64,000 nucleotides of DNA from assembly GCF_008000815.1 (NCBI RefSeq), contig NZ_CP042806.1:744001-808000 (forward strand), read 5' to 3'. The notes beneath the pieces were generated by a model. It was not told the DNA's origin, made no database searches, and was given only the letters and a program-made list of their open reading frames with translations. Of the stretch, positions 9,062-63,325 are shown in pieces. How positions within the stretch are numbered: position 1 is the stretch's first letter; every line of letters starts with the position of its first letter. The DNA comes from Terriglobus albidus. Its GTDB lineage: Bacteria > Acidobacteriota > Terriglobia > Terriglobales > Acidobacteriaceae. A program made the translations under genes and the position numbers.

Positions 9062-9096
9062 TAGCAACCAGGAACCAGCAACTAGCAACTAGTTCA
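9062..9096 (-). repeat. Heptamer array, four to five units, at response-regulator stop
   Basis: On the plus strand the units are TAGCAAC, CAGGAAC, CAGCAAC, TAGCAAC and TAGTTCA in exact 7-base register. On the minus strand this is a GTTGCTA-type array, and the TGA stop of the response regulator (9094-9096) is inside the last unit. Confidence 0.8.
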
Positions 9097-9756
9097 CAAC
9101 TGTGCCCGATACCGCTCGATTGCCAACAGCACCAGTTGCGACCGTGTCCTCACACCGGTCTTCGAAAACAACTGTTGCAGCGTCGCCTTCACTGCACTCT
9201 CTGAGATGTTCAGCTCCGCGGCGATCTCTTTGTTGGCTAGCCCCTGCAGCAGGTAACGAAGTGTCGTGCGCTCCCTGTCTGTAAATCGCGGAGCATCCTG
9301 CGGTGTGTTCGCGGCGACGATAGTTTGCAGATACTGCTGATCGATCAGCACGCGTCCCTGCGAGACCTCGAAGATCGCGCGCTGCAATGACTCCGGCGAA
9401 TCCTGCTTATGAAAGATTCCCGAGATGCCCAGGCGGATCAGTGTCAGCGCATCGTTATCCGGAAGCCCGGCAGTCACCAGCAGCACCCGGCCTTCGAACT
9501 TCTCGCGTTGCAGCGCCCGCATGAACTCCAGCGCCGTCTGACTGCCGAGGTCGTAGTCCAGGATCAGCACATCCGGCTTCGCCGCGATGATCTGCGGCAG
9601 TGCCGTCGATGGCGTGCCGCTGTGCCCCGTAATCTCAAACCGGTTGTCGCTCTCTAACAGACGCAGCAGGCCCTCACGGAAGAGCGCATGATCATCCAGA
9701 ACAAACAGACGGACTGTCTTCGTACCCGTGCTCGAACTCGTATCTGTACTGCTCAC
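9094..9756 (-). CDS. NarL/FixJ-type response regulator
   Basis: A 220-residue two-component regulator. The receiver domain (about 15-135) has the acidic pair DD at 21-22, the phospho-acceptor D67 in LILDYD, the T in LLVTAG and K in FHKQDSP. A LuxR-type helix-turn-helix follows (about 155-215: FTDRERTTLRYLLQGLANKEIAAELNISESAVKATLQQLFSKTG in pieces). Translation starts at a GTG whose first base is the last base of the stop codon of the upstream histidine kinase, so the two are translationally coupled. It is the cytoplasmic output of that kinase. The targets are unknown; the divergent bestrophin/stress operon is a possible one. Confidence 0.92.
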   Translation of the reverse strand: MSSTDTSSSTGTKTVRLFVLDDHALFREGLLRLLESDNRFEITGHSGTPSTALPQIIAAKPDVLILDYDLGSQTALEFMRALQREKFEGRVLLVTAGLPDNDALTLIRLGISGIFHKQDSPESLQRAIFEVSQGRVLIDQQYLQTIVAANTPQDAPRFTDRERTTLRYLLQGLANKEIAAELNISESAVKATLQQLFSKTGVRTRSQLVLLAIERYRAQL

Positions 9757-11261
9757 TACGCCTCTACCTCCACCACATTGTGTTCGATGCTGCCTGAAGC
9801 GGCAAAGCGCAGAGTCAGCTCGAAGGTTGCGCCTGCCGCCGTCGGTACATGATGCAACTCGCCGCCGAAGCTCTTCACTATCGCACGCGCCACATACAGG
9901 CCTAGGCCTGTGCCGTTAGTCGAGGCCGTGCGGAAAGGCTGAAACAGCCCAGAAGGATCGGCAATGGCCGGCCCGTTGTTCGTGATCCGCAGTACCGCAC
10001 GTCCATTGCGGTCCAGCGCATGGATCGTCAGCCGCGGCTCATCGGTCTCTTCGGCGGCGCGCAACGCATTCTGCGAGAGATTCAGCAGCACCTGCAGCAG
10101 TCCATCGCGTTCGGCCTGCACCAGGGGGAAACTCGCCGGTACATGCCACTCCAGTTGGCCGCCGATCTCCTCCCAGTCCTGCCCGATAATCACACGCAGC
10201 TCATCTGCCAGCGACGACAATTGCACCGGTGGATGCTGCATCCGGGCCTGGTTCCGCAGATCGAATGAGGCCATGTTGCTTAACCCGGAGACCAGGTTTC
10301 TCAACGCCTCAAAGTCTGGATCCCTCGAGAGATGCCCATGCCGCTCCAGGTTCGATGAGACCACGGCAATTGCCGAACACAGGTTGCGGATCTCATGCGA
10401 TACCGCGCCTGCCAACACACGGTTATGCTGCGTCAACTGCTCGAAGTGCGCATGCTCGCGCTCGCGGACATCGTTGGATGTATCGACCAGGATTGCCGCC
10501 AGCCTCCGCTGCTCTCCATCGCCATAGATTGAGAACCACGCACTTGCTGGAAAGTGGGTTCCATCCGCGCGGCTTGCCCAGGTGCTTGTGCTGGTCCGGA
10601 TGCGTCCCAAGTCCGCGGGCAGCCGCAGGGCATCATCGAAGAAGGTTACAAAGTCGCGGATCGGCCGCTGCAGCAGCGACTGCTCGTCACGCAGCTCGAA
10701 CATCGTATGCGCCGCCCTGTTTGCCGCAAGTATGCGTCCATCGGCGGCGACTGTCAGGATCGCAGCCGGCGAGCTTTCGGCCATCAGCCGCAGTTGTTCC
10801 TCTGCCCTGCGTCGCAGCTTCTGCTCAAACCGCACGCGCGCGTAGTGCAGCAACACCACCCGTCGTGAGTCATTGATCTGGTAGATCAACAGACCGCAAC
10901 CGGTGTATGCAAGCGTCGCCATGGCGAAACGCAGCAGGTGCTCGAGCTGGGTCTCATCGGCAGTAAACAGGCCGCGTGTGTAGGCGCAGAAGACGGACGC
11001 TACCACAATCTGCCATCGTGTCAGGACGGTGGAGGCAACCACTACCGGAAAGATATAGAGGATCCCCAGCGAGAAGTCGAAGTCGTAGATCCACTCCAGC
11101 AGCGCCAGCACCGCAACCATCGCTACCGCCAACGTCAGCATGTGTTTCCGGCTCGACGCGAAACGACGTACCCGGTTATTGATCCGGATACGGCGGCGTC
11201 TGCGGCGTGCGGCGGCGGTAGGCATCTCCTTTATTAGACGCCACCGTATCGCTCGATGCAT
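9756..11261 (-). CDS. Membrane sensor histidine kinase with PAS domain
   Basis: A 501-residue kinase. An Arg-rich N-terminus is followed by about four membrane helices (residues 40-135), a PAS domain (about 155-280: LMAESSPAAILTVAADGRIL), a dimerisation domain with the phospho-His in GAVSHEIRN (about 288), and an HATPase domain with N-box LLNLSQNALRAAE, NNGPA and GTGLGLYVAR. The start is uncertain: ATG at 11261 has no strong ribosome site and ATG at 11225 sits directly against AAAGGAG. It is coupled to the NarL-type regulator by a one-base overlap and diverges from the bestrophin gene, leaving a 131-base shared promoter region. Confidence 0.9.
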   Translation of the reverse strand: MHRAIRWRLIKEMPTAAARRRRRRIRINNRVRRFASSRKHMLTLAVAMVAVLALLEWIYDFDFSLGILYIFPVVVASTVLTRWQIVVASVFCAYTRGLFTADETQLEHLLRFAMATLAYTGCGLLIYQINDSRRVVLLHYARVRFEQKLRRRAEEQLRLMAESSPAAILTVAADGRILAANRAAHTMFELRDEQSLLQRPIRDFVTFFDDALRLPADLGRIRTSTSTWASRADGTHFPASAWFSIYGDGEQRRLAAILVDTSNDVREREHAHFEQLTQHNRVLAGAVSHEIRNLCSAIAVVSSNLERHGHLSRDPDFEALRNLVSGLSNMASFDLRNQARMQHPPVQLSSLADELRVIIGQDWEEIGGQLEWHVPASFPLVQAERDGLLQVLLNLSQNALRAAEETDEPRLTIHALDRNGRAVLRITNNGPAIADPSGLFQPFRTASTNGTGLGLYVARAIVKSFGGELHHVPTAAGATFELTLRFAASGSIEHNVVEVEA

Positions 11262-11392
11262 CTCGCTTTATCCAAAAGATAGCCTTGCTACCCATCCTCC
11301 GGCAGCGGCAAAAGACCCATGGAACGATAGGCCGGGATAGCCCACGATCTCACGTCCAATCGAATGCAAAGAGAGAGGAACCGCATCCTTCC

Positions 11393-12337: not shown

Positions 12338-13225
12338 ATGCTGCAGCACACACGTCACATCATCTTCGCCACCAACTTTTCAGATGCCTGCCACGCTGCT
12401 ATTCCCGCCGTGGCCCGCTGGGTGGATATGCTCCAGTGCAAGCTCACCCTGCTGCATGTTTACGACGCTGATCGCGTCCTCTATCGCGACGCCAACTCGT
12501 TGCTGCAATCCTTTTTCGCCGAGGCCGACAACTATCCTCAATGCCAGCGTGTATTGATGAGCGGTGATCCGGCGGAGGGCATTTCGGAGTTTTGCCAGAG
12601 ACACCGCGATGCCCTACTTGTCTTACCTCCCAGCGACCAGACCGGACTTCCGCGCCCGTGGCACCGCTCCCTCCGCGCACGCATGATCCAGACCCTGCCC
12701 ATCCCCGTGTGGACGCTTGGCCGCACGCTCGTTGGCTCGGCACTTGCGGCCAACAGCGATCGTCATCTCGGTGTCTGGCTCAGCAGTCCGGAGGAAGGTC
12801 TCGCCCATGTCCGTCACGCTGCAAAGTATGCCGCGCAGACCGGGTCGACGCTGCATCTGTTGCACGTCGTACCCGATGTGAATGAAGGTTCACTGACACA
12901 CACATTGCATACGCAGGCTCCGCTGGGCGAGGAGTACGCCGAAGAGTGGTTGACCCAGGTGGCCGCCAGCCTGGACAGCGCACAGCGCGTTGAGATTCAC
13001 GTAGGCCAGGGAAAGGCCCGCCGTGTGTTGCCCAGGCTCATCCGGAGCAGTGGAGCGGAGTTGCTCATGGTCAGCCAGAACTCCGCCATAGAACGCGGCC
13101 TCTTCCGCTCTGAAGTAAGCTCCATCTTCCGCGAGTGCTGCTCGGGCATTGTCAGCGTACCGATGACTGGGCAGGGCAACCTGAAGATCAGCTCCTCTCC
13201 CGCAGTGCTGGAAGAAGTTGCTTAA
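12338..13225 (+). CDS. Tandem universal stress protein (two UspA domains)
   Basis: A 295-residue cytoplasmic protein with two UspA folds, residues 5-130 (IIFATNFSDACHAAIPAVARWVDML, LTLLHVYD, GDPAEGISEFC) and 145-280 (GVWLSSPEEGLAHVRHAAKYA, LHLLHVV, VGQGKARRVLPRLIRSSGAELLMVSQ). The G2xG9G(S/T) nucleotide signature is poorly conserved in both halves, so it may not bind ATP. A strong AAAGGAG precedes the ATG, and the gene follows the bestrophin gene closely; a strong terminator follows. A role in stress-dependent control of the channel is inference from linkage only. Confidence 0.85.
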   Translation: MLQHTRHIIFATNFSDACHAAIPAVARWVDMLQCKLTLLHVYDADRVLYRDANSLLQSFFAEADNYPQCQRVLMSGDPAEGISEFCQRHRDALLVLPPSDQTGLPRPWHRSLRARMIQTLPIPVWTLGRTLVGSALAANSDRHLGVWLSSPEEGLAHVRHAAKYAAQTGSTLHLLHVVPDVNEGSLTHTLHTQAPLGEEYAEEWLTQVAASLDSAQRVEIHVGQGKARRVLPRLIRSSGAELLMVSQNSAIERGLFRSEVSSIFRECCSGIVSVPMTGQGNLKISSSPAVLEEVA

Positions 13226-13249
13226 AGCTCCCCTGTTGAACCCTTCTCG

Positions 13250-13285
13250 CCCCCGTTCCCTTCGCCTGGGAACGGGGGATTTTTT
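13250..13285 (+). terminator. Intrinsic terminator of bestrophin-USP operon
   Basis: A perfect 11-bp stem CCCCCGTTCCC/GGGAACGGGGG with loop TTCGCCT, followed by ATTTTTT. It begins 25 bases after the stress-protein stop codon. Confidence 0.9.
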
Positions 13286-13289
13286 GGGA

Positions 13290-13431
13290 TGGTTGAATGG
13301 TGGAATTGTTGAATGGTTGGGACACCACTAACCTTTTGGGTGTGTTCAGATATTCCATGCAATGGGTGGGAGATCGAGCGAAGCTCGATACGGTTTTTCC
13401 ATTCAACTATTCAACCATTCAACTAACCAAC
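13290..13431. repeat. Inverted pair of octamer arrays bounding a spacer
   Basis: The left array at 13290-13321 has four 8-base units of the form TGGTTGAA. The right array at 13400-13431 has four inverse units (CATTCAAC type) in exact 8-base register, so the two can pair. The TGA stop of the minus-strand gene at 13419 lies inside the right array. Between them is a hairpin ATCGAGC-GAA-GCTCGAT followed by ACGGTTTTT, which recurs at 18214 and 63966. Two heptamer units (TAGCAAC type) lie just beyond, at 13439-13452. Confidence 0.8.
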
Positions 13432-14615
13432 CACACCGTAGCAACTAGCAACTGCACTGCCAGCAGTGCTCCACTCAATGCCAGGAACAACTTCCGCTGC
13501 TTCGTCTCCAGCGCATCTGCAAAGACGCCACCGGAAAAGGCGAACAGGAAGGGCAACGCCCATATCCATGGAGCAGATCGCACGCTCGTCGAGACCATCG
13601 GTAGCAGCAACAACGCCACCAGCAGCGGCACTGTGTTTCCGAAGTAGCGCGAGCGCCGTACGGTGAACCAGAGGAAGAGAGACACCAGCAAGGCGATCTC
13701 AATCGCTGCATTCTCCATCCAGTTGGCGAAGAAGAGGCCCGCTCCGTTCAGCGAGAACCAGAAGCGTGCTGCTCCTGCCGTAAAGACATAGCTGAAGGGC
13801 CCAATGCGGAAGGAGAAGAAGGCAAAGACGATCGCCATGGAACCCACAGCCGCCAGCACCATCGCCTGCATCACTGGACCGCGCCGGCGTTCCGCGAGAT
13901 ACATCATCAGGACGAAAGCGACGATGTAGCCGATCACCGCGGCCAGAATATGCGCGGTCGCGGTAAGTCCCAGCGCCAGGGTCAGCAGCAGGATGCGTGG
14001 CTTCCACTTGCGCCGCGGTCCCTGCATGGCGTGTGCCACACCGATGCCGGTATAGATCAGACCAAAGATGCCCGATGCCGCCAGGATCTCGTTGTTCGGT
14101 GTGGTTGAGATACGCAGGATTTCAGGACAGAAGCTGTACAGCCCCAGCGCGAAGAAGCCGCCTTCATTGCCGAAGAGCCGCCGGGCCACCCACCACAGCG
14201 CTCCGCCCAGCCATACCCCAAAGCAGAGAAAGGGCAACCGCAGCAGCCAGTTCACATATGACAACTGGTGCCGCGCCTCCCAGGTGGAGCCGTTCAACGT
14301 GCCGCCGGGGTAAAGCTTATTCTCCGGTGCACGGAAGTGATCTACGGCGAGCAGCGTCCAGCGCTGCACACTCAGTGGCAGACCGGCGACGCGATAGGCA
14401 AAGGTCCCATCGCCCTGCATGTTGCCGCAGGAGGTGAAGTAGCCCAACAGCGGAGAGGGGCGCTCCCACATCTCGCGTCCGCAGTGGGCATAGCGATAGT
14501 CGGTCTCGGTCAACGGAGCATGGGCAATGCGGTACAGCCCAAGCAGAGAGAAGACGAGGAGCAACAGCGCAGCCAGTTGCTGCGGTCGGCCAAACTGAAT
14601 CCGTGGAAGGGTCAT
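13419..14615 (-). CDS. Polytopic membrane protein, glycosyltransferase-39/83-like
   Basis: A 398-residue protein with about ten membrane segments. The pattern LTETDYRYAHCGREMWERPSPL after the first helix (an acidic pair in the first extracytoplasmic loop), repeated hydrophobic helices and an aromatic loop resemble PMT/ArnT-type lipid-sugar transferases, but no diagnostic motif fixes the substrate. The ATG at 14615 (MTLPRIQFGR) is chosen because codons further upstream are antisense to the DUF2251-like gene. The last residues (LLVATVWLVS) and the stop are encoded by intergenic repeat units, which suggests that the natural C-terminus was overwritten. Confidence 0.6.
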   Translation of the reverse strand: MTLPRIQFGRPQQLAALLLLVFSLLGLYRIAHAPLTETDYRYAHCGREMWERPSPLLGYFTSCGNMQGDGTFAYRVAGLPLSVQRWTLLAVDHFRAPENKLYPGGTLNGSTWEARHQLSYVNWLLRLPFLCFGVWLGGALWWVARRLFGNEGGFFALGLYSFCPEILRISTTPNNEILAASGIFGLIYTGIGVAHAMQGPRRKWKPRILLLTLALGLTATAHILAAVIGYIVAFVLMMYLAERRRGPVMQAMVLAAVGSMAIVFAFFSFRIGPFSYVFTAGAARFWFSLNGAGLFFANWMENAAIEIALLVSLFLWFTVRRSRYFGNTVPLLVALLLLPMVSTSVRSAPWIWALPFLFAFSGGVFADALETKQRKLFLALSGALLAVQLLVATVWLVS

Positions 14616-14681
14616 TGCCAGCGAAGCGCTCTTCCGCGCACCTCGCGGGTCAGAGTCCACTTTGAGTGTATCGTGAGGGGT

Positions 14682-15098
14682 ATGGATTCCGTCTCGTTCC
14701 GGCCTGGCAAAGCCTATCTGTCCTCCCTCTCCCCGGCCGTGCCGTGGGCCGTTATCTTTGAGGATGAAGGCGATACCGCGTATTTTTACGCGATTGATAC
14801 ACGCCGCGGAGACTCCGACGACCGCATCCTCGACGCTGTGCTCATCTACAACGTCAAGCACATCCCCGACGCTGAGCGCGAACACCTCGCCTCTATCGTC
14901 TGGTCTCCAGACGGTCTGAAGGCACTGCTCTACCTGAACGGATACGCCCACGCCATCTTCGACTTCCAGAATCGCTGCGGCTACTGCCGCACCAACTTCC
15001 CAAACTTCATGGAAGACCAGCTCAGCGCCTGGCGAACCTCCAGCCACGCCTGGAACGACGATGTACTGCAGGAGTTCGAAGCGACACTCTATCGCTGA
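14682..15098 (+). CDS. DUF2251-like small protein
   Basis: A 138-residue cytoplasmic protein. It matches my memory of DUF2251: a short N-terminal strand, VIFEDEGDTAYFYAID near residue 25-40, then ILDAVLIYNVKHIPDAE and a hydrophobic/acidic strand IVWSPDGLKALLYLNGYAHAIFDF, and a Cys pair CGYC. No function is known for the family. The ATG is preceded by GTGAGGGG. It is divergent from the membrane protein on the minus strand and convergent with the TonB-dependent receptor. A longer frame on the opposite strand here is a shadow. Confidence 0.7.
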   Translation: MDSVSFRPGKAYLSSLSPAVPWAVIFEDEGDTAYFYAIDTRRGDSDDRILDAVLIYNVKHIPDAEREHLASIVWSPDGLKALLYLNGYAHAIFDFQNRCGYCRTNFPNFMEDQLSAWRTSSHAWNDDVLQEFEATLYR

Positions 15099-15197
15099 TG
15101 GAATGATTGAATAACGAATAATTGAATGATGAGAAGGGCGTGCGTTCGGCGACCCCATAATGATTCAATGATTCAATCCCTTCAATTATTCAATTAT
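15099..15197. repeat. Inverted pair of octamer arrays between convergent genes
   Basis: The left units (15102-15136) read ATTGAATA, ATTGAATG and variants. The right units (15163-15197) read ATGATTCA twice, then AATTATTC-like units. The period is 8 with one nine-base unit. The arrays face each other across about 25 bases, and the TAA stop of the receptor gene (15194-15196) lies inside the right array. Confidence 0.75.
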
Positions 15198-17275
15198 TTT
15201 GCGCCATGAATCGCCAGCCTCATCGTCACTGTCTGTGGCGCCGCCAATGTCAGCACGCCCGTTCGTCCAGCATCGATGGAGCGGTCCAGCAGATTCTGCA
15301 CTGCGACTGAGGCTGTAAACCGCCGCGCGAAGTCCCGCTCTGCTTGTACATCAAAGCGTGCATAGCTTCCCAGCTTCAACGTGTTCAGGGTGTCGTCATA
15401 CTGACGTCCGCTCACATACGTCACTACGTTCAGCCGCCCGATGTGCTTGCTCTCCGCCGTGGTGGTCAGCGTAAAGGAGTGGCGTGGAACCTGCGGAGCC
15501 CATTTGTTCACAAGCTGCGGCTGCTGATCGAACCGTGTCACGGTTGCGACCGCAAGCTGATACGCTCCGGTAATCACCAGCGGACGGATGGGATGCACGC
15601 GCGCCTCCAGCATCATGCCGCGGCTGCGAAGCTGGCCGGCATTGAAGCGCTTGTCGGTAGTGGCTGTTGCAGTCTGGGTCTGGATGACGGTCGTGATCGG
15701 CCGGTTCACCATCGTCCAGAAGCCTGAGGCTCGTATCTGCACATCATGTGCCAGCGTGGCATTGCCGCCCAGCTCAAATCCGGTTGCCTTCTCTGACCGC
15801 AGGTCCGGATTCGCCAGCGTTGTCGTCGTACCCACGGTGCTGGTGCGGTACAGTTCGTTCAGTGTCGCTCCACGGAAGGCGCGGAAGACTGATCCCGTCA
15901 GCGAGACGCCGCGCCCGATATCGCGCACCACACCCAGTCTCGGGCTGAAGACATTCTCACCGCGTCCGGTCAGTGCCACCGCTGGTGTCGAGATCTGCCG
16001 GGGATCGATGATAGAGAAACGGTCATACCGTCCCGAAAGCTGCAACGTCCAGTGCCGCGGCTGCCACACGCCCAGCGCGTAGGCGCCTGTATCACGCTGG
16101 CGTGCCCGCGTATTCGTCTGGGCCTGCGGCACGCCGGCGGCGCTGTAGGGCGTCTCGATATTGGTTGCGCGGATGTCGCGCAGATCCGAACCGAAGGCAA
16201 TGGTTACCGGAGCTCCGGCGAATCCACGCGCCCACTGCGCTGCATAGCCACGCTCCTCTGAAGGAACGCTCTGGGTGCGCACCACACGCTCTGAGCTGCG
16301 TGCAGTTCCCCCTAGCACCGTGCTGAAGCTCTGGCGGTAGTTCTCTTCCGCTCCGTAAAGCCGCAGGAAGGCGCGCCCATGATTGGCGGAGTTCCAGTCG
16401 CTGCCGGCGCTGTAGCGCCAGAGGCGCGTCGCATTCGTCGTCAGCGGAGTTCCGTTGCCGCGATTCTCATTCAGCAGATTGCCGCGCAGAAATCCTGAAA
16501 GCTCATTCGTGAACCGGCGCCGCACCTCGGTGCGCCCGCTCTGCCAATGCACAAAGGCTGGCACATCGACAGGGCCTCGCGCTGCCGGAGCCGTCAACTT
16601 GTATCCGTCAGTCTGAAAGAGTGTGACTGCTCCCAAACCGCTCCACGGTCCCTTAGCCAAGGTCAGCAGGCCATCACCGTCGGTTGTGTTCAGTCCCCCG
16701 CCTTCGATCGACGCTCCATAGCGCAGAGGTCCAGCCTCTTCAGGAGTCACATTGATGGCTCCGCCGATCGCTGACGATCCGTACAGGTCAGAGGCTCCGC
16801 CGCGCATCAGGTCTACCTGCTGCAACGCCAGCCGCGGCACTTCGTTCCAGTGCACCCAACCGCCGAAGGCATCGTTCAATGGCACCTGGTCGCTCAATAC
16901 CAGCGTGCGGGAGGCAGCAGTCGATCCCAGGCCCCGCAGCGAGATGCCCTGCGAGGTGGGGTTGGCAACCCATGACGATGTTCTGCGGAAGAGCTGAAAG
17001 CCCGCCACCTGTTTCAATCGGTCATCAAGCGTGAATCCCGGAGTCCGATCCAGATCTTCGTTTGAAAGCACACGCACGCTGGAAGCGCCGGCATCCAGTG
17101 ACAGGGCCTGCCGCGAGGCCGTCACCGTCACCTGCTCATTCACTGTTGGACGCGTCGTCTGAGCGGGAGTCGATGCGGTTTGCGAGCTCGGTACTGCTTG
17201 CGAAAAGGCCGGGGCAGGGAGACAAAGGACTGCAGCAACTGCGGCGTGCTTAACGTGCTTCATGGAATCGATCAT
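15194..17275 (-). CDS. TonB-dependent outer-membrane receptor
   Basis: A 693-residue outer-membrane transporter. It has a signal peptide (MKHVKHAAVAAVLCLPAPAFSQ from the second Met), a spacer and then a plug domain (about 40-160: EQVTVTASRQALSLDAGASSVRVLS resembles a TonB box region, then PGFTLDDRLKQVAGFQLFRR, QGISLRGLG, DLMRGGASDLYGSSAIGGAIN). A beta-barrel follows, with NPDLRSEKATGFELGG typical of vitamin B12/siderophore-type receptors, and ending with a QNLLDRSID block. The start could be ATG at 17275 or 17263; the longer frame upstream overlaps the S4-domain gene and is rejected. It is divergent from the S4 gene. The substrate is unknown. Confidence 0.9.
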   Translation of the reverse strand: MIDSMKHVKHAAVAAVLCLPAPAFSQAVPSSQTASTPAQTTRPTVNEQVTVTASRQALSLDAGASSVRVLSNEDLDRTPGFTLDDRLKQVAGFQLFRRTSSWVANPTSQGISLRGLGSTAASRTLVLSDQVPLNDAFGGWVHWNEVPRLALQQVDLMRGGASDLYGSSAIGGAINVTPEEAGPLRYGASIEGGGLNTTDGDGLLTLAKGPWSGLGAVTLFQTDGYKLTAPAARGPVDVPAFVHWQSGRTEVRRRFTNELSGFLRGNLLNENRGNGTPLTTNATRLWRYSAGSDWNSANHGRAFLRLYGAEENYRQSFSTVLGGTARSSERVVRTQSVPSEERGYAAQWARGFAGAPVTIAFGSDLRDIRATNIETPYSAAGVPQAQTNTRARQRDTGAYALGVWQPRHWTLQLSGRYDRFSIIDPRQISTPAVALTGRGENVFSPRLGVVRDIGRGVSLTGSVFRAFRGATLNELYRTSTVGTTTTLANPDLRSEKATGFELGGNATLAHDVQIRASGFWTMVNRPITTVIQTQTATATTDKRFNAGQLRSRGMMLEARVHPIRPLVITGAYQLAVATVTRFDQQPQLVNKWAPQVPRHSFTLTTTAESKHIGRLNVVTYVSGRQYDDTLNTLKLGSYARFDVQAERDFARRFTASVAVQNLLDRSIDAGRTGVLTLAAPQTVTMRLAIHGAK

Positions 17276-23776: not shown

Positions 23777-23955
23777 ATAATTGAATGATTCAATCCGGGT
23801 GGGATATTGCGTTGTGCGCGACCGCCCTTCTTGTTTGTCATCCTGAGCATAGCGAAGGACCTGCTGTTAGCGATTTGTCCCAGTTATGGGACGATACGGA
23901 ACACCTCAAATTCCCGCATCATTCAATCATTCCGTTATTCCATCATTCAATTTGC
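23763..23955. repeat. Spacer with facing octamer arrays and an internal REP half
   Basis: The left units at 23763-23793 are ATTCAATC/ATTGAATA/ATTGAATG. The right array at 23920-23951 has four units (CATTCAAT, CATTCCGT, TATTCCAT, CATTCAAT) in exact 8-base register. Both neighbouring genes end in this region: the GT83-like TGA at 23774 and the HpnI-like TGA at 23949 lie inside the arrays. Between them, at 23837-23869, is one REP-like half (GTCATCCTGAGC, GAAGGACCTGC). Confidence 0.78.
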
Positions 23956-25107
23956 TCGAATCAACTTCCCCTTATCCAGCTTGAACCGTTCCCCCCGCCA
24001 CTCGATGGTGTCGTCCAGCAATGCGAAGAGCCAAAGCAGAAGACAGGCAACATCCTTGAGGGGTATGACCCACAGATCACGCAACACCTGCCCGTCGCGC
24101 AGTACGCCGACACCTGCGGCCAGGCAAACAGTCATGCGCGCCAGCAGCGCCATTGAGAGCAATGAGAAGCTCCAGAGATCAAACCCGCTGGCGATGACAG
24201 TAGCCAACGCCCAGGGGACACAGTAGGTCGTAGGGAGTCCGAAGTAGCCGCCCGGGCGGGCATCGCGGATGGTGCGATACCAGCGAAGCTGGTGGTTCCA
24301 ATAGCCTGAGGCGCTGTACTGCGGCACGGATGTCTCTACAACCTCGTCGGAGAGCACGACTTCATATCCAGCCTGGCTGATGCGAAGGCCGAGTTCGTAA
24401 TCGTCGGCGAGGTATTCAACAATCGCTTCCAGCCCGCCGATCTCTTCAATGATCCGCTTGCGTGTGGCCAGCGTTGCGCCGAGGCCGAAGCGGATGCCCT
24501 TCTCCATGCGGCGCGCGGCAAACAGCCCGGGAACGAAGTCGCAGGAGACGCCGAGAGCCTCAAACTTCGCCCACAACGTAGCGCCGCGTGTCGCGGTAAC
24601 GGCGCGATAAGCACACGTCACCATGCCGATGCGGGCGTTATCGAAGGGCGAGATGATACGCGTGAGGTAGCGCGGCGAGACGACGATATCGGCATCGTTG
24701 ATGACGATGTACTCGTGGCGTGCATGCGGCAGCATCTGCGCCAGGTTGCTCACCTTGCCGCTGGTGCCCAGACGCAGCGGACAATGGACGAGCACGATGT
24801 CCATCTGTGGGAACTCGGCTTGCAGCCGATGAACCTCGGCGACTGCCGGGTCACCCATGTCAGAGACGCCGAAGAGCAATTGCACAGGCCCCTCATACTG
24901 CTGGGTGCAGTGGCTGGCGAAAGCTGCGTAAAGCTTCGGGTCAACGCCCTTGAGCGGCTTCATCACAGTAACGCCGGGAGCAAACTCCGGACGCTTGGCG
25001 GTGCGCCAGAAACGGACAAAGTCACGCGTGCCCCACAGGGCCAGAAGCGAAAAGGCAATACCTGCCAGCGTGAGCAGGGCGAAAAAGATCGCGACACCGA
25101 GAGCCAT
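23947..25107 (-). CDS. hpnI: HpnI-like hopanoid glycosyltransferase (GT2/GT21)
   Basis: A 386-residue membrane-bound transferase resembling ceramide glucosyltransferase. It has an N-terminal membrane helix, then VTVMKPLKGVDPKLY, the metal-binding DAD in VINDADIVV, the base in ADDYELG and the processive QxxRW motif in HQLRWYRT, followed by C-terminal membrane helices. HpnI adds N-acetylglucosamine to bacteriohopanetetrol; that name is inferred from resemblance and from the presence of hopanoids in Acidobacteria. Other glucosylceramide-type transferases are alternatives. It is convergent with the GT83-like gene. Confidence 0.78.
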   Translation of the reverse strand: MALGVAIFFALLTLAGIAFSLLALWGTRDFVRFWRTAKRPEFAPGVTVMKPLKGVDPKLYAAFASHCTQQYEGPVQLLFGVSDMGDPAVAEVHRLQAEFPQMDIVLVHCPLRLGTSGKVSNLAQMLPHARHEYIVINDADIVVSPRYLTRIISPFDNARIGMVTCAYRAVTATRGATLWAKFEALGVSCDFVPGLFAARRMEKGIRFGLGATLATRKRIIEEIGGLEAIVEYLADDYELGLRISQAGYEVVLSDEVVETSVPQYSASGYWNHQLRWYRTIRDARPGGYFGLPTTYCVPWALATVIASGFDLWSFSLLSMALLARMTVCLAAGVGVLRDGQVLRDLWVIPLKDVACLLLWLFALLDDTIEWRGERFKLDKGKLIRAN

Positions 25108-25138: not shown

Positions 25139-25252
25139 GAGTTGCCAGTTGCGAATGGGCGAGGCCGCCGTGGGTTGCCTTGGCGGGTGTGTCGAAGATC
25201 CCTATCTTGCCCATGCCGTACTTCGGCAACTGGTACCTGGCAACTGGCAACT
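25139..25252. repeat. Heptamer arrays bounding the HpnI-permease spacer
   Basis: The right array (25225-25252) has four units GGCAACT, GGTACCT, GGCAACT, GGCAACT in exact 7-base register. On the minus strand it reads GTTGCC directly after the TAA of the permease. The left end (25139-25153) has two inverse units (GTTGCCA, GTTGCGA). Confidence 0.72.
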
Positions 25253-28232: not shown

Positions 28233-28239
28233 CGGTTAC

Positions 28240-28282: not shown

Positions 28283-28318
28283 GTTGAATGGTTGAATCGT
28301 TGAATAGTTGAATGGTTT
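28283..28318 (+). repeat. Perfect four-unit octamer array (GTTGAATN)
   Basis: Four consecutive units GTTGAATG, GTTGAATC, GTTGAATA and GTTGAATG in strict 8-base register, followed by a degenerate GTTTC. Only the eighth base varies. This is the cleanest array in the window and follows the RNase P RNA, not a protein gene. Confidence 0.9.
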
Positions 28319-28657: not shown

Positions 28658-28685
28658 CTTCAACTTTTAACTTTCAACCTTTAAC
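28658..28685 (+). repeat. Four-unit heptamer array upstream of bioY
   Basis: CTTCAAC, TTTTAAC, TTTCAAC and CTTTAAC lie in exact 7-base register. It is the CAAC-reading side of a spacer whose other side carries an octamer array, an exception to the usual like-with-like pairing. Confidence 0.8.
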
Positions 28686-29739: not shown

Positions 29740-29742
29740 GGC

Positions 29743-29903
29743 GTTGAAAGTTGCAAGTTGAAAGTTGAAGCCGTGCTGTATTGGCGGTCTATGAATCCTC
29801 GCCACACCACCTGAACTCTTCTTCCGCGCTTTTTGTGGAGTGGCTATGCCCCCTAAGAAACCCATGCGGTACGTTTTCAACCCTTCAACTTGCAACTTTC
29901 AAC
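29743..29903. repeat. Inverted pair of heptamer arrays around the padR leader
   Basis: The left array (29743-29770) reads GTTGAAA, GTTGCAA, GTTGAAA, GTTGAAG. The right array (29883-29903) reads CTTCAAC, TTGCAAC, TTTCAAC and then merges into TTAAAAT. The right is nearly the exact inverse of the left, so they could pair to a stem of about 21 bases. They start four bases after the DUF1284 stop and end ten bases before the padR promoter. Confidence 0.82.
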
Positions 29904-29912
29904 TTAAAATAC

Positions 29913-29945: not shown

Positions 29946-29957
29946 GTTGTACAGGAT

Positions 29958-33415: not shown

Positions 33416-34143
33416 CGCGAGCACTCAGCACGCTACGCCGCTACACGCCCGCGCGAGTAGCGCTACCCTCTACCGGTGTGAGCCTCGCAACCAGCGAGGT
33501 GCTCGCCTTCCAGTTGGCGCACGCACAGGCGCGGGATGCCGTTCACGTTCCGCTGCATCTGCCGAGTCTCGCACTGCGCCTGCAACAGGAAGCAGGTGTC
33601 TCGCAGGTGTTGCAACTGACGACGGCTGCGCACGACCGCGCACACTATCTGCGCAATCCAGGGTTGGGACGACGGCTCAGCGATGCTTCGCGCACCCAGC
33701 TCGTACACGGATCGTATGACCTGGCGATTATCGTTGCGGATGGCCTGTCGGCGCTGGCAGTAGAACGGCATGCGGTTGAGACACTGGCGGCACTGCTCCC
33801 CAAGCTCGCTGAATGGAGCCTGGCGCCGATCGTCCTGCTGACCCAGGCTCGCGTTGCGGTAGCGGATGAGGTCGGCGAGTCTCTGGGAGCGAAGTGCTCA
33901 CTGGTGCTGATCGGCGAGCGGCCAGGGCTGTCGTCGGCAGATTCGCTGGGAGCGTACCTGACCTGGGATCCATGTGTCGGCAAGACCGACGCAGACCGCA
34001 ACTGCATCTCGAATATCCGCTACGGCGGTCTGGAGCCAAAGGCGGCCGCGGCAAAGATCCTGTGGTATCTGCAGGAGGCAAAGCGGTTGGGCTTGAGCGG
34101 AACGGGGCTCAAGGAGAGGCAGTTGCTGGTTGCTGGTTCCTAG
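33412..34143 (+). CDS. eutC: Ethanolamine ammonia-lyase small subunit
   Basis: A 243-residue partner of EutB that supplies part of the cobalamin site. Family blocks: RRYTPARVALPSTGVSLATSEVLAFQLAHAQARDAVH (pieces), IVVADGLSA-like IIVADGLSALA, GERPGLSSADSLGAYLTWDPCVGKTDADRNCISNIRYGGL. It begins at an ATG overlapping the EutB stop. No microcompartment shell, EutA reactivase or transporter gene is beside them. The C-terminal RQLLVAGS and the TAG stop are encoded by GTTGCTG repeat units, so the natural C-terminus has probably been replaced. Confidence 0.94.
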   Translation: MTRALSTLRRYTPARVALPSTGVSLATSEVLAFQLAHAQARDAVHVPLHLPSLALRLQQEAGVSQVLQLTTAAHDRAHYLRNPGLGRRLSDASRTQLVHGSYDLAIIVADGLSALAVERHAVETLAALLPKLAEWSLAPIVLLTQARVAVADEVGESLGAKCSLVLIGERPGLSSADSLGAYLTWDPCVGKTDADRNCISNIRYGGLEPKAAAAKILWYLQEAKRLGLSGTGLKERQLLVAGS

Positions 34144-34390
34144 TTGCTGGTTTGTACCGCCGCGAACATTTTCACTGTAAGACACATCTTCGTTGCACCA
34201 ACTTTTGTCATTCCGTAGCGCAGCGGAGGAATCTGCTTCTCTACCGTTGACCTCCAGGCAGGAAATGGTGAAAAAGCAGATCCCTACGGGATGACAAACA
34301 AAAAGGATGTACCGCACGACATTTCAAGTAGCCTCCGCGCTTCACCAACCAGCAACCAGAAACTAGCAACCAGCAACCAGCAACTAGAAT
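34122..34390. repeat. Heptamer arrays around a REP pair, eutC-hemB spacer
   Basis: The left array (34122-34149) has GTTGCTG, GTTGCTG, GTTCCTA, GTTGCTG in exact 7-base register and contains the eutC stop. The right array (34343-34390) has about six inverse units (CAGCAAC, CAGAAAC, TAGCAAC). Between them lies a REP-like inverted pair (34207-34240 and 34272-34295; GTCATTCCGTAGCG facing CTACGGGATGAC). Confidence 0.85.
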
Positions 34391-34396
34391 CAAGAC

Positions 34397-35389
34397 ATGG
34401 AGTTTCCTATCACCCGAATGCGCCGTCTTCGCCGTACCGCGGCGATGCGCTCGCTGGTCCGTGAGACCCATCTCCGTCCCGGCATGCTGTTGTATCCGCT
34501 CTTCATCTGTCCAGGAGAAAGTGTACGGAAGCCCATCTCTTCCATGCCCGATGTCTTCAACCTCTCCATCGATGAGGCATTGAAAGAAGCGCACGAGTGC
34601 GCCAAGCTTGGCATCGGCGGCCTGTTGCTCTTCGGCCTGCCGGAGAGCAAGGATGAAGCCGGCACAGGCGGTTACGCCGACGACGGCATCGTGCAGCGGG
34701 CGATCCGTGCCATCAAGGCAGATCGTGCGCTCGATGGGCTGCTGGTGATCTCCGATGTCTGCATGTGCGAGTACACCTCGCACGGACACTGCGGCATCAT
34801 CGCCCGTGAGGGTGACCACTATCACGTCGACAATGATGCGACGCTCGAGCTGCTGGCAAAGACCGCGGTTTCGCATGCAAAGGCTGGCGCGGATATCGTT
34901 GCGCCGTCCGACATGATGGACGGCCGCGTCGAAGCGATTCGCGAAGAACTGGATATCGAAGGCTTCACCGAGGTGCCGATCCTCAGCTATGCGGCCAAGT
35001 TCGCCTCGGCGTTCTATGGACCCTTCCGCGAGGCCGCGGATTCAGCGCCGCAGTTTGGCGATCGCCGGACCTACCAGATGGATGCGGCGAATCCGCGCGA
35101 AGCCATGCGCGAGATCGAGCTGGACCTAATGGAAGGCGCGGACATGATCCTGATGAAGCCCGCCGGCGCTTACCTGGACATCATCCTCGCCGCCCGCGAG
35201 CGCTTCGAGGTACCGATCGGCGCCTACCAGGTCTCAGGCGAATACTCCATGCTCTGCGCAGCCTTCGAAAAGGGCTGGCTGGAACGCGAGCGGACCATCC
35301 TCGAGAGCCTGCTGGCGATCCACCGCTCCGGCGCCGACTTTATCTTTACGTACTTCGCGAAGGAAGCAGCGAGGCTGCTTCGCAGCTAG
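34397..35389 (+). CDS. hemB: Delta-aminolevulinic acid dehydratase (porphobilinogen synthase)
   Basis: A 330-residue enzyme of tetrapyrrole synthesis that condenses two 5-aminolevulinates. It has the zinc-cysteine type metal site [14 protein letters not shown], the first Schiff-base lysine in [16 protein letters not shown] and the second in [13 protein letters not shown], and [10 protein letters not shown]. Its tetrapyrrole product feeds haem and, further on, cobalamin used by EutBC next door, a link of context only. The ATG lies seven bases after the heptamer array. The TAG stop is inside the next array unit (GCTAGTT). Confidence 0.97.
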
Positions 35390-35412
35390 TTCCTGGTTGC
35401 TAGTTGCTTGCG
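35386..35412 (+). repeat. Heptamer array at hemB stop
   Basis: GCTAGTT, CCTGGTT, GCTAGTT and GCTTGC in 7-base register; the TAG of hemB (35387-35389) is in the first unit. A degenerate inverse (GGCAACTAGTCAG) sits at 35552-35564 on the other side of the spacer. Confidence 0.75.
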
Positions 35413-39686: not shown

Positions 39687-39693
39687 GGCGCAA

Positions 39694-39785
39694 TTGAAGA
39701 ATGGAATAAGTGAATGATTGAATGATGATCCGTGGCGCGAATGTGGCTTTATTCAATCATTCAATTCTTCCATCATTCAATTACG
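39694..39785. repeat. Inverted pair of octamer arrays, mutS2-VWA spacer
   Basis: The left array (39694-39728) has four units ATTGAAGA, ATGGAATA, AGTGAATG, ATTGAATG. The right array (39752-39785) has four inverse units. Aligned as inverses, they agree at about 29 of 35 positions, so the spacer transcript could form a stem of more than 30 bases between the two convergent genes. Confidence 0.85.
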
Positions 39786-50267: not shown

Positions 50268-50298
50268 CAATTCAACCATTCAACTAACCAGCAACTAG
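50268..50298 (-). repeat. Mixed octamer/heptamer array at aminotransferase stop
   Basis: On the minus strand, GCTAGTTGCTGGTTAG is followed by TTGAATGGTTGAATT; a 7-base unit type passes directly into an 8-base type. The TAG stop of the aminotransferase (50284-50286) lies at the junction. Confidence 0.7.
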
Positions 50299-60529: not shown

Positions 60530-60706
60530 AGCGGGTCCTTCGCTTTGCTCAGGATGACAAACTAAAGGCGGTTCGCGCGAAGCTTCACCCCAGCCAGCGA
60601 AGCTGGCCGGGAACCCCGGAGCGCGAATACCCAGGTCCCTATGGGGACCCGGGGCACCCGATGTATGGGCAGCCTGGATTATTCAATTCTTCAATCATTC
60701 CATCCG
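60530..60706. repeat. Repeat-filled spacer: REP half, palindromic block, octamer array
   Basis: 60530-60562 is one REP half (GCGGGTCCTTCGC.. CAGGATGAC). 60595-60668 is a palindromic block (CAGCCAGCGAAGCTGG, CCAGGTCCCTATGGGGACC, GGGGCACCC), the inverse of 18171-18236. 60677-60702 is an octamer array (TATTCAAT, TCTTCAAT, CATTCCAT) that reads ATTGAATA after the stop of the minus-strand rsmI gene. Confidence 0.75.
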
Positions 60707-60711
60707 CCGCT

Positions 60712-61578
60712 TTAGCGGCGAGTCTTTTCGCGTTGCCACTGGCGGTAGACTTCGCTCTTGCCCAGGTTGCGGTCGCGGGCTACCTGCTTGAGGGCGTCTT
60801 TTTCGGAGAGCCCCTGTTTCATAAGCGCATCGACAGTCGACGCGATGGAAGCGGGCGCTGCCTGCGCGGCCTCTTCCGCGGGAGGCTCGCCGCTGAGCAG
60901 GAGGACGAACTCTCCGCGAATTGAGTCACGGGCTTTGAGTATGTCCAGTATCTCGGAGACTGGACCGCGCAGATGTTCTTCGTGCAGCTTCGTCACCTCG
61001 CGCGCCAGCGCTACCGGATGCTGCGCTCCAAAGACTGCCGCCACGTCTTCCAGCGTTTCGACGATGCGGTGCGGGGCTTCGTAGAAGATGTGCGTTGTGC
61101 CGTCCAGTACGAGCGACTCCAACTGGGTTCTGCGCTGGCCTGATTTGGGCGGCAGGAATCCGTGGAAGGTGAAGCTTTCTGTCGACAGACCGCTGGCAAT
61201 GAGTGCGGAGATCGCCGCGTTCGCTCCTGGAATCGGATAGACGGGTATGCCTGCGGCGATGGCTGCCGCAACCACCTCGACGCCTGGATCGGCGATGCCG
61301 GGTGTGCCGGCGTCGGAGACGATGGCGATGCGCTGCCCGGCCTGCAGCGCTATCACCAACTCATCACTGCGCGAGCGCTCGTTGTGCTGGTGATAGCTGA
61401 TGGTCGGCTTCTGAATCTGGTAGTGATTCAGAAGCTTCTGCGTCTGCCGTGTGTCTTCGCAGGCGATGCGGTCGACCGACTGCAAGACACGCAGAGCGCG
61501 CAGGGTAATGTCTTCCAGATTGCCGATCGGCGTTGCGACAAGATACAAACCCGGCGCCAGCGGCGCAGGCTCACTCAC
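60712..61578 (-). CDS. rsmI: 16S rRNA (cytidine1402-2'-O)-methyltransferase
   Basis: A 288-residue SAM-dependent tetrapyrrole-methylase-fold enzyme that modifies C1402 of 16S rRNA. Signatures: GLYLVATPIGNLEDITLRAL, ACEDTRQTQKLL, VSDAGTPGIADPG, PIPGANAAISALIASGL, HGFLPPKSG, FYEAPHRIVETLEDV, REVTKLHEEHLRG. A GTG start overlaps the stop codon of the upstream site-2-protease-like gene (GTGA), so translation is coupled. Confidence 0.96.
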   Translation of the reverse strand: MSEPAPLAPGLYLVATPIGNLEDITLRALRVLQSVDRIACEDTRQTQKLLNHYQIQKPTISYHQHNERSRSDELVIALQAGQRIAIVSDAGTPGIADPGVEVVAAAIAAGIPVYPIPGANAAISALIASGLSTESFTFHGFLPPKSGQRRTQLESLVLDGTTHIFYEAPHRIVETLEDVAAVFGAQHPVALAREVTKLHEEHLRGPVSEILDILKARDSIRGEFVLLLSGEPPAEEAAQAAPASIASTVDALMKQGLSEKDALKQVARDRNLGKSEVYRQWQREKTRR

Positions 61579-62714: not shown

Positions 62715-62717
62715 GGG

Positions 62718-63293
62718 ATGAGGATCATCGGTGGGAAGTGGAGATCGAGGCAGATTGCGGCGCCAAAAAGCGAGGCAACCAGGCCGACCAGCGACCGTCT
62801 GCGCGAGACGCTCTTTAACGTGCTGGGGCAGGACTGTACCGGCTTGCGTGTGCTGGACTTATACGCCGGTTCGGGCGCTGTGGGCCTGGAGGCGCTGAGC
62901 CGGGGAGCACGCCGCGTCTGGTTTGCGGAGAAATCTTCGCCCGCCCTGGCCACGCTGCGGGCCAATCTGCGGACGCTGGGAGCCGAGGGAGCCGTAGTCG
63001 ATAACAGTGGTGTTTCAACCCTTCTCTCCAAACTCGCCAAAGAAAAGACGGCGATCGACCTGATCTTCCTCGACCCTCCATGGGATATGGCGCAGGAGTA
63101 TGAGCGCACCCTTGCCTTCCTGGGCTCGCATGAAGAGCTGCTGAACGACGGAGCCCGCGTGGTCGCCGAGCATCGCAACAAAGTGGAGCTTCCCGAGCGC
63201 GTCGGCAACCTGGAACGCACGCGTGTGCTCAAACAAGGGGACGCCTCCCTGAGCTTTTATCAGTGGAATGATGAAGGCGACAGAATAAGCTGA
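62718..63293 (+). CDS. rsmD: 16S rRNA (guanine966-N2)-methyltransferase
   Basis: A 191-residue SAM methyltransferase for 16S rRNA G966. MRIIGGKWRSRQI, RPTSDRLRETLFNVL, the SAM loop VLDLYAGSGAVGLEALSRGA, and the catalytic motif FLDPPWD (NPPY-type) are present. ATG at 62718; a longer frame upstream is antisense to the membrane protein gene. The start is 3 bases from that of the divergent gene, so the two promoters must lie inside the other's coding region or be shared. Confidence 0.94.
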   Translation: MRIIGGKWRSRQIAAPKSEATRPTSDRLRETLFNVLGQDCTGLRVLDLYAGSGAVGLEALSRGARRVWFAEKSSPALATLRANLRTLGAEGAVVDNSGVSTLLSKLAKEKTAIDLIFLDPPWDMAQEYERTLAFLGSHEELLNDGARVVAEHRNKVELPERVGNLERTRVLKQGDASLSFYQWNDEGDRIS

Positions 63294-63301
63294 CGCTTCA
63301 A

Positions 63302-63325
63302 TTCTCCCATCATTCCGTTATTCAA
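63302..63325 (+). repeat. Octamer array between rsmD and maf
   Basis: TTCAAT, TCTCCCAT, CATTCCGT and TATTCAAT in 8-base register, starting nine bases after the rsmD stop and ending seven bases before the maf start. Confidence 0.7.

What the first reader, a model, noticed from the sequence alone, without database searches (positions are those of the whole stretch)
9062..63325. Four-unit 7- or 8-base tandem arrays at gene ends across the window
At least 14 loci carry short degenerate tandem arrays, mostly about four units long, in exact 7- or 8-base register: 9062-9096, 13290-13321, 13400-13431, 15102-15136, 15163-15197, 23920-23951, 25225-25252, 28283-28314, 28658-28685, 29743-29770, 29883-29903, 34122-34149, 34343-34390, 39694-39728, 39752-39785, 60677-60702, 63302-63325. 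Units share a GTTG/CAAC or TTGAAT/ATTCAA core (GTTGAATN, GTTGCTG, GTTGAAA, GTTGCCA). After a stop codon they read GTTG in the sense of that gene; on the other side of the spacer they read CAAC. Unit type usually matches on both sides of a spacer, so the two could pair. The constant unit number, two periods (7 and 8) and orientation rule are seen directly; the function is unknown. Similar strings appear in translated spacers of other bacteria as far as I recall, but I know no described role.
Basis: partly seen in the sequence, partly recalled or inferred. Interest (0 to 1): 0.85.

Follow-up and report, generated by a model that had tools for sequence, protein, structure and literature searches.

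The report
Paired four-unit repeats at gene ends
In a soil bacterium of the genus Terriglobus, many gaps between genes are framed by two facing rows of four short DNA repeats that close relatives keep in the same places but often with different letters, which suggests that the layout rather than the exact sequence is what lasts.

Summary
The arrays are real, far above chance, and follow the stated rules. The host is Terriglobus albidus-like. Between genes, only periods 7 and 8 (and their doubles) stand out. Four unit families occur (GTTGAATN, ATTGAATN, GTTGAAA, GTTGCYR); in each, four units is the commonest length, although none of 188 arms has the G-tracts for a quadruplex. Two-array spacers face inward in 47 of 52 cases, never outward. 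Stop-side arms start about 2-3 nt behind stop codons in GTTG sense and often supply the stop. The two arms share a family in 53 of 56 pairs (about 15 by chance), yet are not base-matched beyond family in the 8-nt families. In a close relative 23 of 27 array-bearing gene ends keep an array, but in 13 of 23 of another family; both arms changed together in 8 of 9 blocks. After a swap the cores do not align; one same-family core is inverted. Closest known kind: the four-unit GGGAATC heptads of Xanthomonas, with the same geometry; REPINs are the closest mobile analogue. I read them as REPIN-like inverted modules swapped as blocks at fixed slots; a 3'-end hairpin role is possible but unproven. No linked transposase was found.

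The parts
9062..9089 (-). GTTGCTR array, 4 units, GTTG sense behind the stop of the response-regulator gene 9094-9756(-)
13292..13315 (+). GTTGAATN arm (left); follows a hairpin-plus-T-run site behind the stop of 12338-13225(+)
13400..13431 (-). GTTGAATN arm (right), overlaps the stop of 13419-15047(-); relative G015 has ATTGAATN on both arms here
15102..15136 (+). degenerate ATTGAATN array with one 7-nt step; not recovered by the scan
15154..15202 (-). ATTGAATN array with one 9-nt step, overlaps the stop of 15194-17143(-)
23920..23951 (-). ATTGAATN arm at the stop of the hpnI-like gene 23947-25107(-)
25224..25251 (-). GTTGCCA array with inner flank GTACGGCATGGG, stop side of 25256-26503(-)
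28283..28314 (+). GTTGAATN array, 4 units, begins 48 nt past the end of the RNase P RNA gene (27809-28235)
28658..28685 (-). GTTRAAR array upstream of 28738-29307(+) (BioY); its family does not match the array at 28283
29743..29770 (+). GTTGAAA arm (left) behind the stop of 29320-29739(+)
29883..29903 (-). GTTGAAA arm (right); lies just outside a stretch before the PadR-like gene 29958-30344 that is conserved in G015 and G017 and looks like a promoter (my reading)
34122..34156 (+). GTTGCTG arm (left) encoding the last codons and the TAG stop of eutC (33412-34143)
34343..34391 (-). GTTGCTG arm (right), 6-7 units, upstream of the hemB-like gene 34397-35389; G015 carries GTTGAATN on both arms at this slot, and so do G008 (both flanks match) and probably G012 (one flank matches)
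35382..35409 (+).
39693..39724 (+). ATTGAATN arm (left) behind the stop of the mutS2-like gene 37326-39686
39725..39749 (.). 25-nt core; the same slot in G015 holds it inverted (score 25 inverted, 10 direct, 100 shuffles at most 14)
39750..39781 (-). ATTGAATN arm (right), stop side of 39790-40734(-); G008 has GTTGAATN on both arms
50269..50292 (-).
60680..60703 (-). ATTGAATN array, stop side of 60712-61578(-)
63295..63326 (-). ATTGAATN array between 62820-63293(+) and an ORF of uncertain strand (63318-63911(-) or 63333-63893(+))

Best explanation
The arrays are the arms of short inverted modules: an arm of four 7- or 8-nt units, a variable core (8-620 nt, median 76, in 45 same-family pairs), and the same unit family inverted. 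They sit in the gaps between transcription units. Shown by sequence: inward facing; almost always one family per module; outer edge at the stop codon, often supplying it; the same slots in close relatives with whole-module family swaps; cores that do not align after a swap. Inferred: a module behaves as one heritable, exchangeable block, like a REPIN. It can fold into a hairpin in single-stranded DNA or RNA, is replaced in place by recombination or copying from other modules or other strains, and survives where it breaks nothing, which means behind a stop codon, where the GTTG-sense strand of most families offers stop codons in two or three frames. The hairpin may also help to delimit or protect mRNA 3' ends. 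What spreads the modules is not known; no array was found beside a Y1-transposase-like gene.
For: Two-array spacers: 47 inward, 0 outward, 5 same-strand. Family agreement of adjacent inward arms 53 of 56, shuffled mean 15.3, maximum 30, while array-bearing spacers under 5 kb apart agree in only 32% of 47 pairs in G000; so the module, not the region, is the unit. No extra base identity between the arms of one module for 8A and 8G, as expected of two ends of a family rather than a co-evolving stem. Slots: 23 of 27 array-bearing 3' ends in G000 also bear an array in G008, against 6 of 151 array-less ends (Fisher p 1e-19, though the two ends of a convergent spacer are not independent); the family differs in 13 of the 23. 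Both arms switched together in 8 blocks: 663906, 757226, 778144, 783687, 865556, 636667 and two blocks at 645128. Cores could be compared in 7 genome pairs with swapped family (5 of the 8 blocks) and exceed shuffles in 0 of 7. Over 15 spacers with arrays in both genomes, cores are 0.49 identical against 0.45 shuffled; 93 array-less spacers are 0.72 against 0.52, the 15 convergent ones among them 0.62 against 0.49. One same-family core is inverted. A conserved inner flank (ACGTACGGCATGGG next to GTTGAAG) shows that 7A arms are ends of a larger dispersed sequence. Array rates follow the number of 3' ends: convergent 25 of 143, co-directional 35 of 418, divergent 7 of 163. Stops inside arrays are family-specific: 8A TGA 14 of 15, 8G TGA 8 of 9, 7C TAG 6 of 7, 7A TAA 4 and TGA 3 of 7.
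Against: No array lies in the 20 fetched stretches (59 kb) that cover the 22 Y1_Tnp matches of G000, G008, G015 and G012, so no RAYT link. No clean empty site appeared among the presence/absence cases shown. Paired arms are more alike than single arms only in 8A (p 0.03), not in 8G, 7A or 7C, unlike REPINs. Single arms are common (36 of 67 array-bearing G000 spacers), and a looser search found a hidden inverted partner for only 3 of 56 singles. Some same-family cores are simply inherited: at 635437 and 645128 they align directly between genomes. One slot breaks the two-arm rule (771731: 8G/7A in G000, 7A/7A in G015). One slot swapped only the array while most of the neighbouring spacer stayed near-identical (731422).
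Confidence: 0.5

Rival explanations
1. Selected RNA element: the inverted arms form a long hairpin just behind the stop codon that ends transcription in both directions or protects the mRNA 3' end; the unit sequence is free as long as both arms can pair, so families interchange.
For: Slot kept while family changes; both arms change together; left arm pairs with right in 37 of 44 folded blocks; association with 3' ends. In Xanthomonas, transcripts start or stop in quadruplex-capable GGGAATC arrays more often than in the mutated arrays used as control (PMC4692102 section 15).
Against: No base-level covariation in 8A or 8G; 36 of 67 array-bearing G000 spacers have one arm only; intrinsic-terminator-like sites are not significantly rarer at array ends (11 of 85 against 139 of 673, p 0.11), and 4 of those 11 lie before the array; G017 has none of these families at the 26 orthologous slots.
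Confidence: 0.27
2. Mutational product: replication slippage makes the arrays and fold-back copying between inverted arms keeps both arms of one type; no function.
For: GTTGCCA arrays of about 35 units; an inverted core; among 17 orthologous same-family arms some are intact and others rewritten (36 of 58 N positions and 367 of 406 other positions identical overall); slight excess identity of paired arms in 7C (p 0.04).
Against: Sharp mode at four units rather than a steady decline; the same composite 32-mer recurs at distant loci, e.g. 645310 and 861209; fold-back copying predicts excess identity of the two arms, not seen in 8A and 8G; it does not explain the anchoring at stop codons.
Confidence: 0.15
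3. Tandem binding sites for a protein that reads four spaced GTT(G) units in DNA or RNA.
For: Four units in all families; a GTT start common to three of the four families.
Against: Two periods, four families and family turnover at one slot would need a very loose reader; I did not look for a candidate protein.
Confidence: 0.06

Closest known systems
GGGAATC / GGGGA(C/T)T heptad repeats of Xanthomonas and Nostoc (Rehm et al. 2015, PMC4692102; abstract and six sections read)
   Same: Heptad tandem arrays, most often four units, intergenic, sense just behind the stop codon and antisense before ORFs, overlap with stop codons, rare between divergent genes; [quoted passage not shown]
   Different: Here 0 of 188 arms have four GGG tracts (8 have any GGG, 3 have four GG); 8-nt as well as 7-nt periods; four families in one genome; arms family-matched; family swapped at fixed slots.
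REPINs / REP dimers (Bertels and Rainey 2011, PMC3116915, passages; Di Nocera et al. 2013, PMC3733652, abstract and one section)
   Same: Inverted pairs with a less conserved spacer, several classes per genome, close to 3' ends of convergent or co-directional genes, ends often supply the stop codon, single arms present.
   Different: Arms are tandem arrays rather than small tagged palindromes; no array beside the Y1-transposase-like genes examined.
TAACTGA repeats of Beggiatoaceae (MacGregor 2015, PMC4679880; abstract and outline only)
   Different: Those lie mostly just before start codons; these lie behind stop codons.
Tandem heptanucleotides of the cyanobacterium Calothrix (mentioned in the introduction of PMC4692102; original not seen; the name STRR is recalled)
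   Same: Tandem heptads.
   Different: Not compared here.

Membership tests
Four-unit heptad arrays of the GGGAATC kind | Four tandem units most common | tested here: met
   four is the mode in all four families
Four-unit heptad arrays of the GGGAATC kind | Sense behind stop, antisense before ORF, convergent pairs | tested here: met
Four-unit heptad arrays of the GGGAATC kind | G-tract units able to form G-quadruplexes | tested here: not met
   0 of 188 arms have four GGG tracts
Four-unit heptad arrays of the GGGAATC kind | 7-nt period | tested here: inconclusive
   7A and 7C have it; 8A and 8G have period 8
REPIN | Two same-class repeats inverted around a variable spacer | tested here: met
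REPIN | Each arm a small palindrome with GTAG or CGTC tag | tested here: inconclusive
   lone 7A, 8A and 8G arms fold weakly (mean -0.2 to -2.0 kcal/mol), 7C arms more (-5.7); tags judged by eye on the alignment, not searched
REPIN | RAYT gene flanked by the repeat | tested here: not met
   0 arrays in 20 stretches around the 22 Y1_Tnp matches of four genomes
REPIN | Doublets more conserved than singlets | tested here: inconclusive
   only 8A, p 0.03
MITE | Conserved core between terminal repeats | tested here: not met
   28 of 53 cores single-copy in the DNA held and about 20 hold other repeats; 8G blocks of similar length at other loci have variable cores
MITE | Target-site duplication and empty sites | tested here: inconclusive
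   no clean empty site among the cases shown; duplications not scored
Integron attC sites (GTTRRRY core, recalled) | Integron integrase in the genome | tested here: not met
   0 of 19 genus genomes over the TIGR02249 cut-off (weaker hits occur in all 19 and in all 14 control genomes)
Intrinsic terminator | GC-rich short-loop hairpin followed by a T run | tested here: inconclusive
   such sites at 11 of 85 array ends and 139 of 673 other ends; the scan cannot see long-loop hairpins made by the arms
REPIN or RNA hairpin | Mobility or transcript-end activity in the cell | not testable with these tools
   needs strain series and RNA 3'-end mapping

The most novel reading that the evidence does not exclude
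A sequence-blind architecture: bacteria of several phyla carry spacer-bounding modules whose arms are four short units long whatever the unit (GGGAATC, GTTGAATN, ATTGAATN, GTTGAAA, GTTGCTR, AGGAAAY). The modules are swapped whole at fixed gene-end slots, so what is kept is the four-unit inverted layout, and the G-quadruplex explanation offered for Xanthomonas is not the general one. An unknown machinery copies or replaces them.
Probability: 0.3. Interest if true: 0.85.

Novelty: new variant of a known kind. Interest (0 to 1): 0.62.

Why it matters
Over-representation of heptads between bacterial genes was noted in 2007 (as cited in PMC4692102) and still has no accepted explanation; the fullest study I read links the preference for four units to G-quadruplexes. 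Here the same preference and geometry appear with units that lack G-tracts and with an 8-nt period, so that explanation cannot be general. The family swaps at fixed slots between close relatives are a natural experiment: slots with different families, single arms and none can be compared, which makes it directly testable whether these modules end transcripts, stabilise mRNA or are passengers.

Tried and rejected
Chance or composition: rejected.

Base-level stem covariation: looked for, not found for 8A and 8G; slight in 7C (p 0.04) and 7A (p 0.09).

All-frame stop supply as the whole reason for the orientation: GTTG-sense arms carry stops in two or three frames in 54 of 54 8A, 50 of 52 8G and 43 of 44 7A, and CAAC-sense arms are open in all frames in 38 of 54 8A and 47 of 52 8G; but 7A is open in only 10 of 44, and 7C does not follow at all. 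Kept as a contributory reason only.

RAYT link: not found. Integron attC: GTTGAAT fits GTTRRRY, but no integron integrase over the cut-off.

Copying of whole blocks from other loci: 28 of 53 cores are single-copy in the DNA held. One 8G block has 75-79% matches over most of its length at several other places; these are several different slots, some of them one slot seen in two or three genomes, and much of each match is arms. Open.

Regional clustering of families: not in G000 (p 0.25) or one G008 contig (p 0.70), present in another (p 0.017).

Slot conservation out to G017: 0 of 26 by family; a weak period signal (4 of 26 against 3 of 96, p 0.037) that fades at stricter thresholds (p 0.06 and 0.20).

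Limits: genes were called with a home-made codon-usage caller, so single starts may be wrong. One search used only genes of at least 420 nt with at least 40 nt to the next gene. One search used only spacers of 40-450 nt. The eight two-arm swaps were read off the listings. Seven literature searches were made; a paper outside that library could describe these arrays. One search ran but printed nothing; its content was redone.
Full report
WHERE. The window is positions 744001-808000 of a one-contig genome of 6,405,582 bases, G000. By its mutS2-like gene it belongs with Terriglobus albidus (97% to strain DSM 26559, L042; 98% to MAG Bin6.3, L041).

THE OBSERVATION. The 17 listed stretches are there; a profile scan recovers 16 and adds three. 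In 864 kb of the genome, intergenic self-match in 21-nt spans is in clear excess only at periods 7 and 8 and their doubles; in a 444-kb segment a few places also appear at 6, 9 and 12 (3, 4, 2 against 14 and 27 at 7 and 8). With unit profiles, 94 arrays stand against 1 in a Markov null. The arrays fall into four families: 8G (GTTGAATN), 8A (ATTGAATN), 7A (GTTGAAA and kin), 7C (GTTGCYR). Runs with at least two perfect units and up to two mismatches per unit, in G000 and G008 spacers, by 2/3/4/5 units: 8G 3/7/33/1; 8A 2/3/23/3; 7A 4/8/21/4 and one of six; 7C 2/2/13/9 and single cases of 6, 7, 17 and 20; the null gave none. A stricter extension rule leaves many at three. Four is thus the commonest number in every family. 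7C reaches five more often than the 8-nt families, which would also fit a length limit near 28-35 nt. Of 188 arms, 0 have four GGG tracts, 8 have any GGG and 3 have four GG.

PLACE AND ORIENTATION. In 1.2 Mb of G000 (444 kb contiguous plus 38 stretches of 20 kb; two overlapping stretches dropped), 67 of 724 spacers hold 105 arrays. Stop-side arrays read GTTG in gene sense 61 times and antisense 12 times; start-side arrays antisense 28 and sense 4. Stop-side sense arrays begin a median 2 nt behind the stop in G000, 3 in G008 and 6 in G015; start-side antisense arms lie a median 38 nt before the start in G000. Across G000, G008 and G015, two-array spacers are 47 inward, 0 outward, 5 same-strand. 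Convergent spacers have arrays in 25 of 143, co-directional in 35 of 418, divergent in 7 of 163, roughly in proportion to the number of gene 3' ends. In 48 of 102 stop-side cases in the three genomes the array begins before the end of the gene. Where the stop lies inside the array (38 cases) it is mostly the one the family offers: TGA in 14 of 15 8A and 8 of 9 8G, TAG in 6 of 7 7C, TAA 4 and TGA 3 in 7A. At eutC the last codons and the stop are array sequence in both G000 and G015, with different C-terminal residues. Two examples show the module outside functional sites: in the spacer 29740-29957 a promoter-like stretch before the next gene is conserved in G015 and G017 beyond the right arm, and at 13226-13418 the left arm follows a hairpin-plus-T-run site.

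TWO ARMS, ONE FAMILY. Adjacent inward arms share the family in 53 of 56 cases (G000, G008, G015; shuffled mean 15.3, maximum 30). Array-bearing spacers less than 5 kb apart agree in 32% of 47 pairs in G000, and in 31% of 13 and 44% of 25 in two G008 contigs, so the agreement belongs to the spacer, not the region. Yet arms of one spacer are no more alike than same-family arms from other spacers in 8A (0.777 against 0.789) and 8G (0.830 against 0.839); 7A (0.877 against 0.859, p 0.09) and 7C (0.839 against 0.790, p 0.04) show a slight excess. The arms can pair (at least 60% of the left arm paired to the right arm in 37 of 44 blocks), but there is no sign of base-by-base compensation in the 8-nt families. 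Single arms are common (36 of 67 G000 spacers); a looser search found a hidden inverted partner for 3 of 56 singles, and 0 and 0 in two controls.

COMPARISON OF SLOTS. Of 178 orthologous 3' ends in G000 and G008, 23 bear an array in both, 4 only in G000, 6 only in G008, 145 in neither (Fisher p 1e-19; the two ends of a convergent spacer are not independent). Some of the 'only' cases show a degenerate array in the other genome. Among the 23 shared slots the family is the same in 10 and different in 13. In G015, 7 of 9 G000 slots are shared, 5 with the same family. In G017, 0 of 26 carry these families; a few slots show heptads of its own (4 of 26 against 3 of 96 at a loose threshold, p 0.037, weaker at stricter ones). 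Where both arms are detected in at least two genomes and the family differs, both arms changed together in 8 blocks of 7 spacers: 663906, 757226, 778144, 783687, 865556, 636667 and two blocks at 645128, where G008 has 8G on all four arms and G015 has 8A on all four. The ninth case, 771731, is mixed in G000 (8G left, 7A right) and 7A/7A in G015. Cores could be compared in 7 genome pairs with swapped family and exceed shuffles in none. Same-family cores vary: direct alignment at 635437 and 645128, borderline at 636667, inverted at 783687 (G000 against G015, 25 against at most 14 in shuffles), none at 648646, 676660, 757226 and 773740. Over 15 spacers with arrays in both G000 and G008, cores are 0.49 identical against 0.45 for shuffles, while 93 array-less spacers are 0.72 against 0.52 (15 convergent ones 0.62 against 0.49). 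One slot, 731422, swapped 8G for 7C with most of the adjoining spacer almost unchanged. Of 17 orthologous same-family arms some are nearly identical and others rewritten (N positions 36 of 58 identical, other positions 367 of 406).

LARGER UNITS. 7A arms are followed on the inner side by a conserved ACGTACGGCATGGG or a CGTTAAGGCATGGG variant, and some GTTGCCA arms share GTACGGCATGGG. The motif GTTGAAGACGTACGGCATGGG with up to 3 mismatches occurs 26, 34, 23 and 19 times in G000, G008, G015 and G012, and 0-4 times in the other 15 genomes of the genus searched. GTTGAATN three times in a row without mismatch is found in 2 of 396 genomes drawn across the phylum (G000 and G008; G012 and G015 were not in that draw). 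The families are thus confined to one clade as far as tested. The layout is wider: in a Granulicella locus (L050) four-unit AGGAAAY arrays start 1 nt behind the called stops of two genes on opposite strands.

DISTRIBUTION. All 33 matches to the GTTGAATN triple lie outside 2.18-5.15 Mb. Array-bearing spacers in the sampled stretches are 18 of 262 outside and 2 of 175 inside roughly that arc (p 0.004). GC skew in the samples is too weak to place origin and terminus firmly.

INTERPRETATION. The statistics are those of element families with two ends: same family at both ends, no extra identity within a pair in the 8-nt families, variable core, single arms, position behind stop codons and supply of the stop. 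REPINs and REP dimers show most of these (PMC3116915 passages; PMC3733652 section). What is missing is a transposase beside the repeats (0 arrays in 20 stretches), evidence of tagged palindromic arms, clean empty sites, and a clear excess conservation of paired over single arms. What is added is replacement of a whole module by one of another family at the same slot. Either slots are few and nearly saturated, or modules are replaced in place by recombination; the present data do not separate these. A role as a 3'-end hairpin would also explain slot keeping with free family choice, and stays the main rival.

WHAT IS KNOWN. Rehm et al. 2015 (abstract and the sections on introduction, Xanthomonas repeats, intergenic placement, homology, transcriptome and discussion read, plus passages) describe GGGAATC heptads with four units most common, the same sense rule, convergent pairs and 83% retention in a sister species, and link the four units to G-quadruplexes. 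The present arrays are the same kind of thing without G-tracts, with a second period and with family swapping. In seven literature searches (listings, apart from the papers named) I found no report of such arrays in Terriglobus.

Noticed in passing
window 8192-8300; L161:9844-9960: A dispersed repeat of about 115 bp with inverted ends (AGAGCATTTTCCCTGT / ACAGGAAAAATGCTC) and a conserved core (76-93% identity): 57 rows in about 1.2 Mb of G000 (at least one locus counted twice through overlapping stretches) and many in G012 and G015, also in the array-poor arc; looks like a MITE.
   Followed up: partly
G000:C1:607053-607168, 614269-614321, 1577575-1577816, 2165077-2165255: Long perfect GTTGCCA arrays, up to about 35 units. 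Several G015 contigs have matches to this repeat at their very ends, so the arrays probably break assemblies.
   Followed up: no
window 34197-34310 and other long cores: Long cores between arms contain other high-copy repeats, tens of copies in the DNA held.
   Followed up: partly
G000:C1 about 2.2-4.9 Mb: An arc of nearly 3 Mb is almost free of the arrays (2 of 175 sampled spacers) although the 115-bp repeat is present there; it may be a younger or accessory part of the chromosome.
   Followed up: partly
L050:134-166 and 3506-3544; L059:5856-5895: Other Acidobacteriaceae carry period-7 arrays with different units (AGGAAAY, GTTCTCA); in L050 they start 1 nt behind called stop codons.
   Followed up: partly
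G008 and G015 at the slot of G000:645128-645346: About 1.4 kb lies between two array modules in G008 and G015 and is missing in G000, where one module remains: a possible deletion between modules.
   Followed up: no
window 27809-28235 (+): Bacterial RNase P class A RNA gene; an array starts 48 nt past its end, so arrays can also follow non-coding genes.
   Followed up: no
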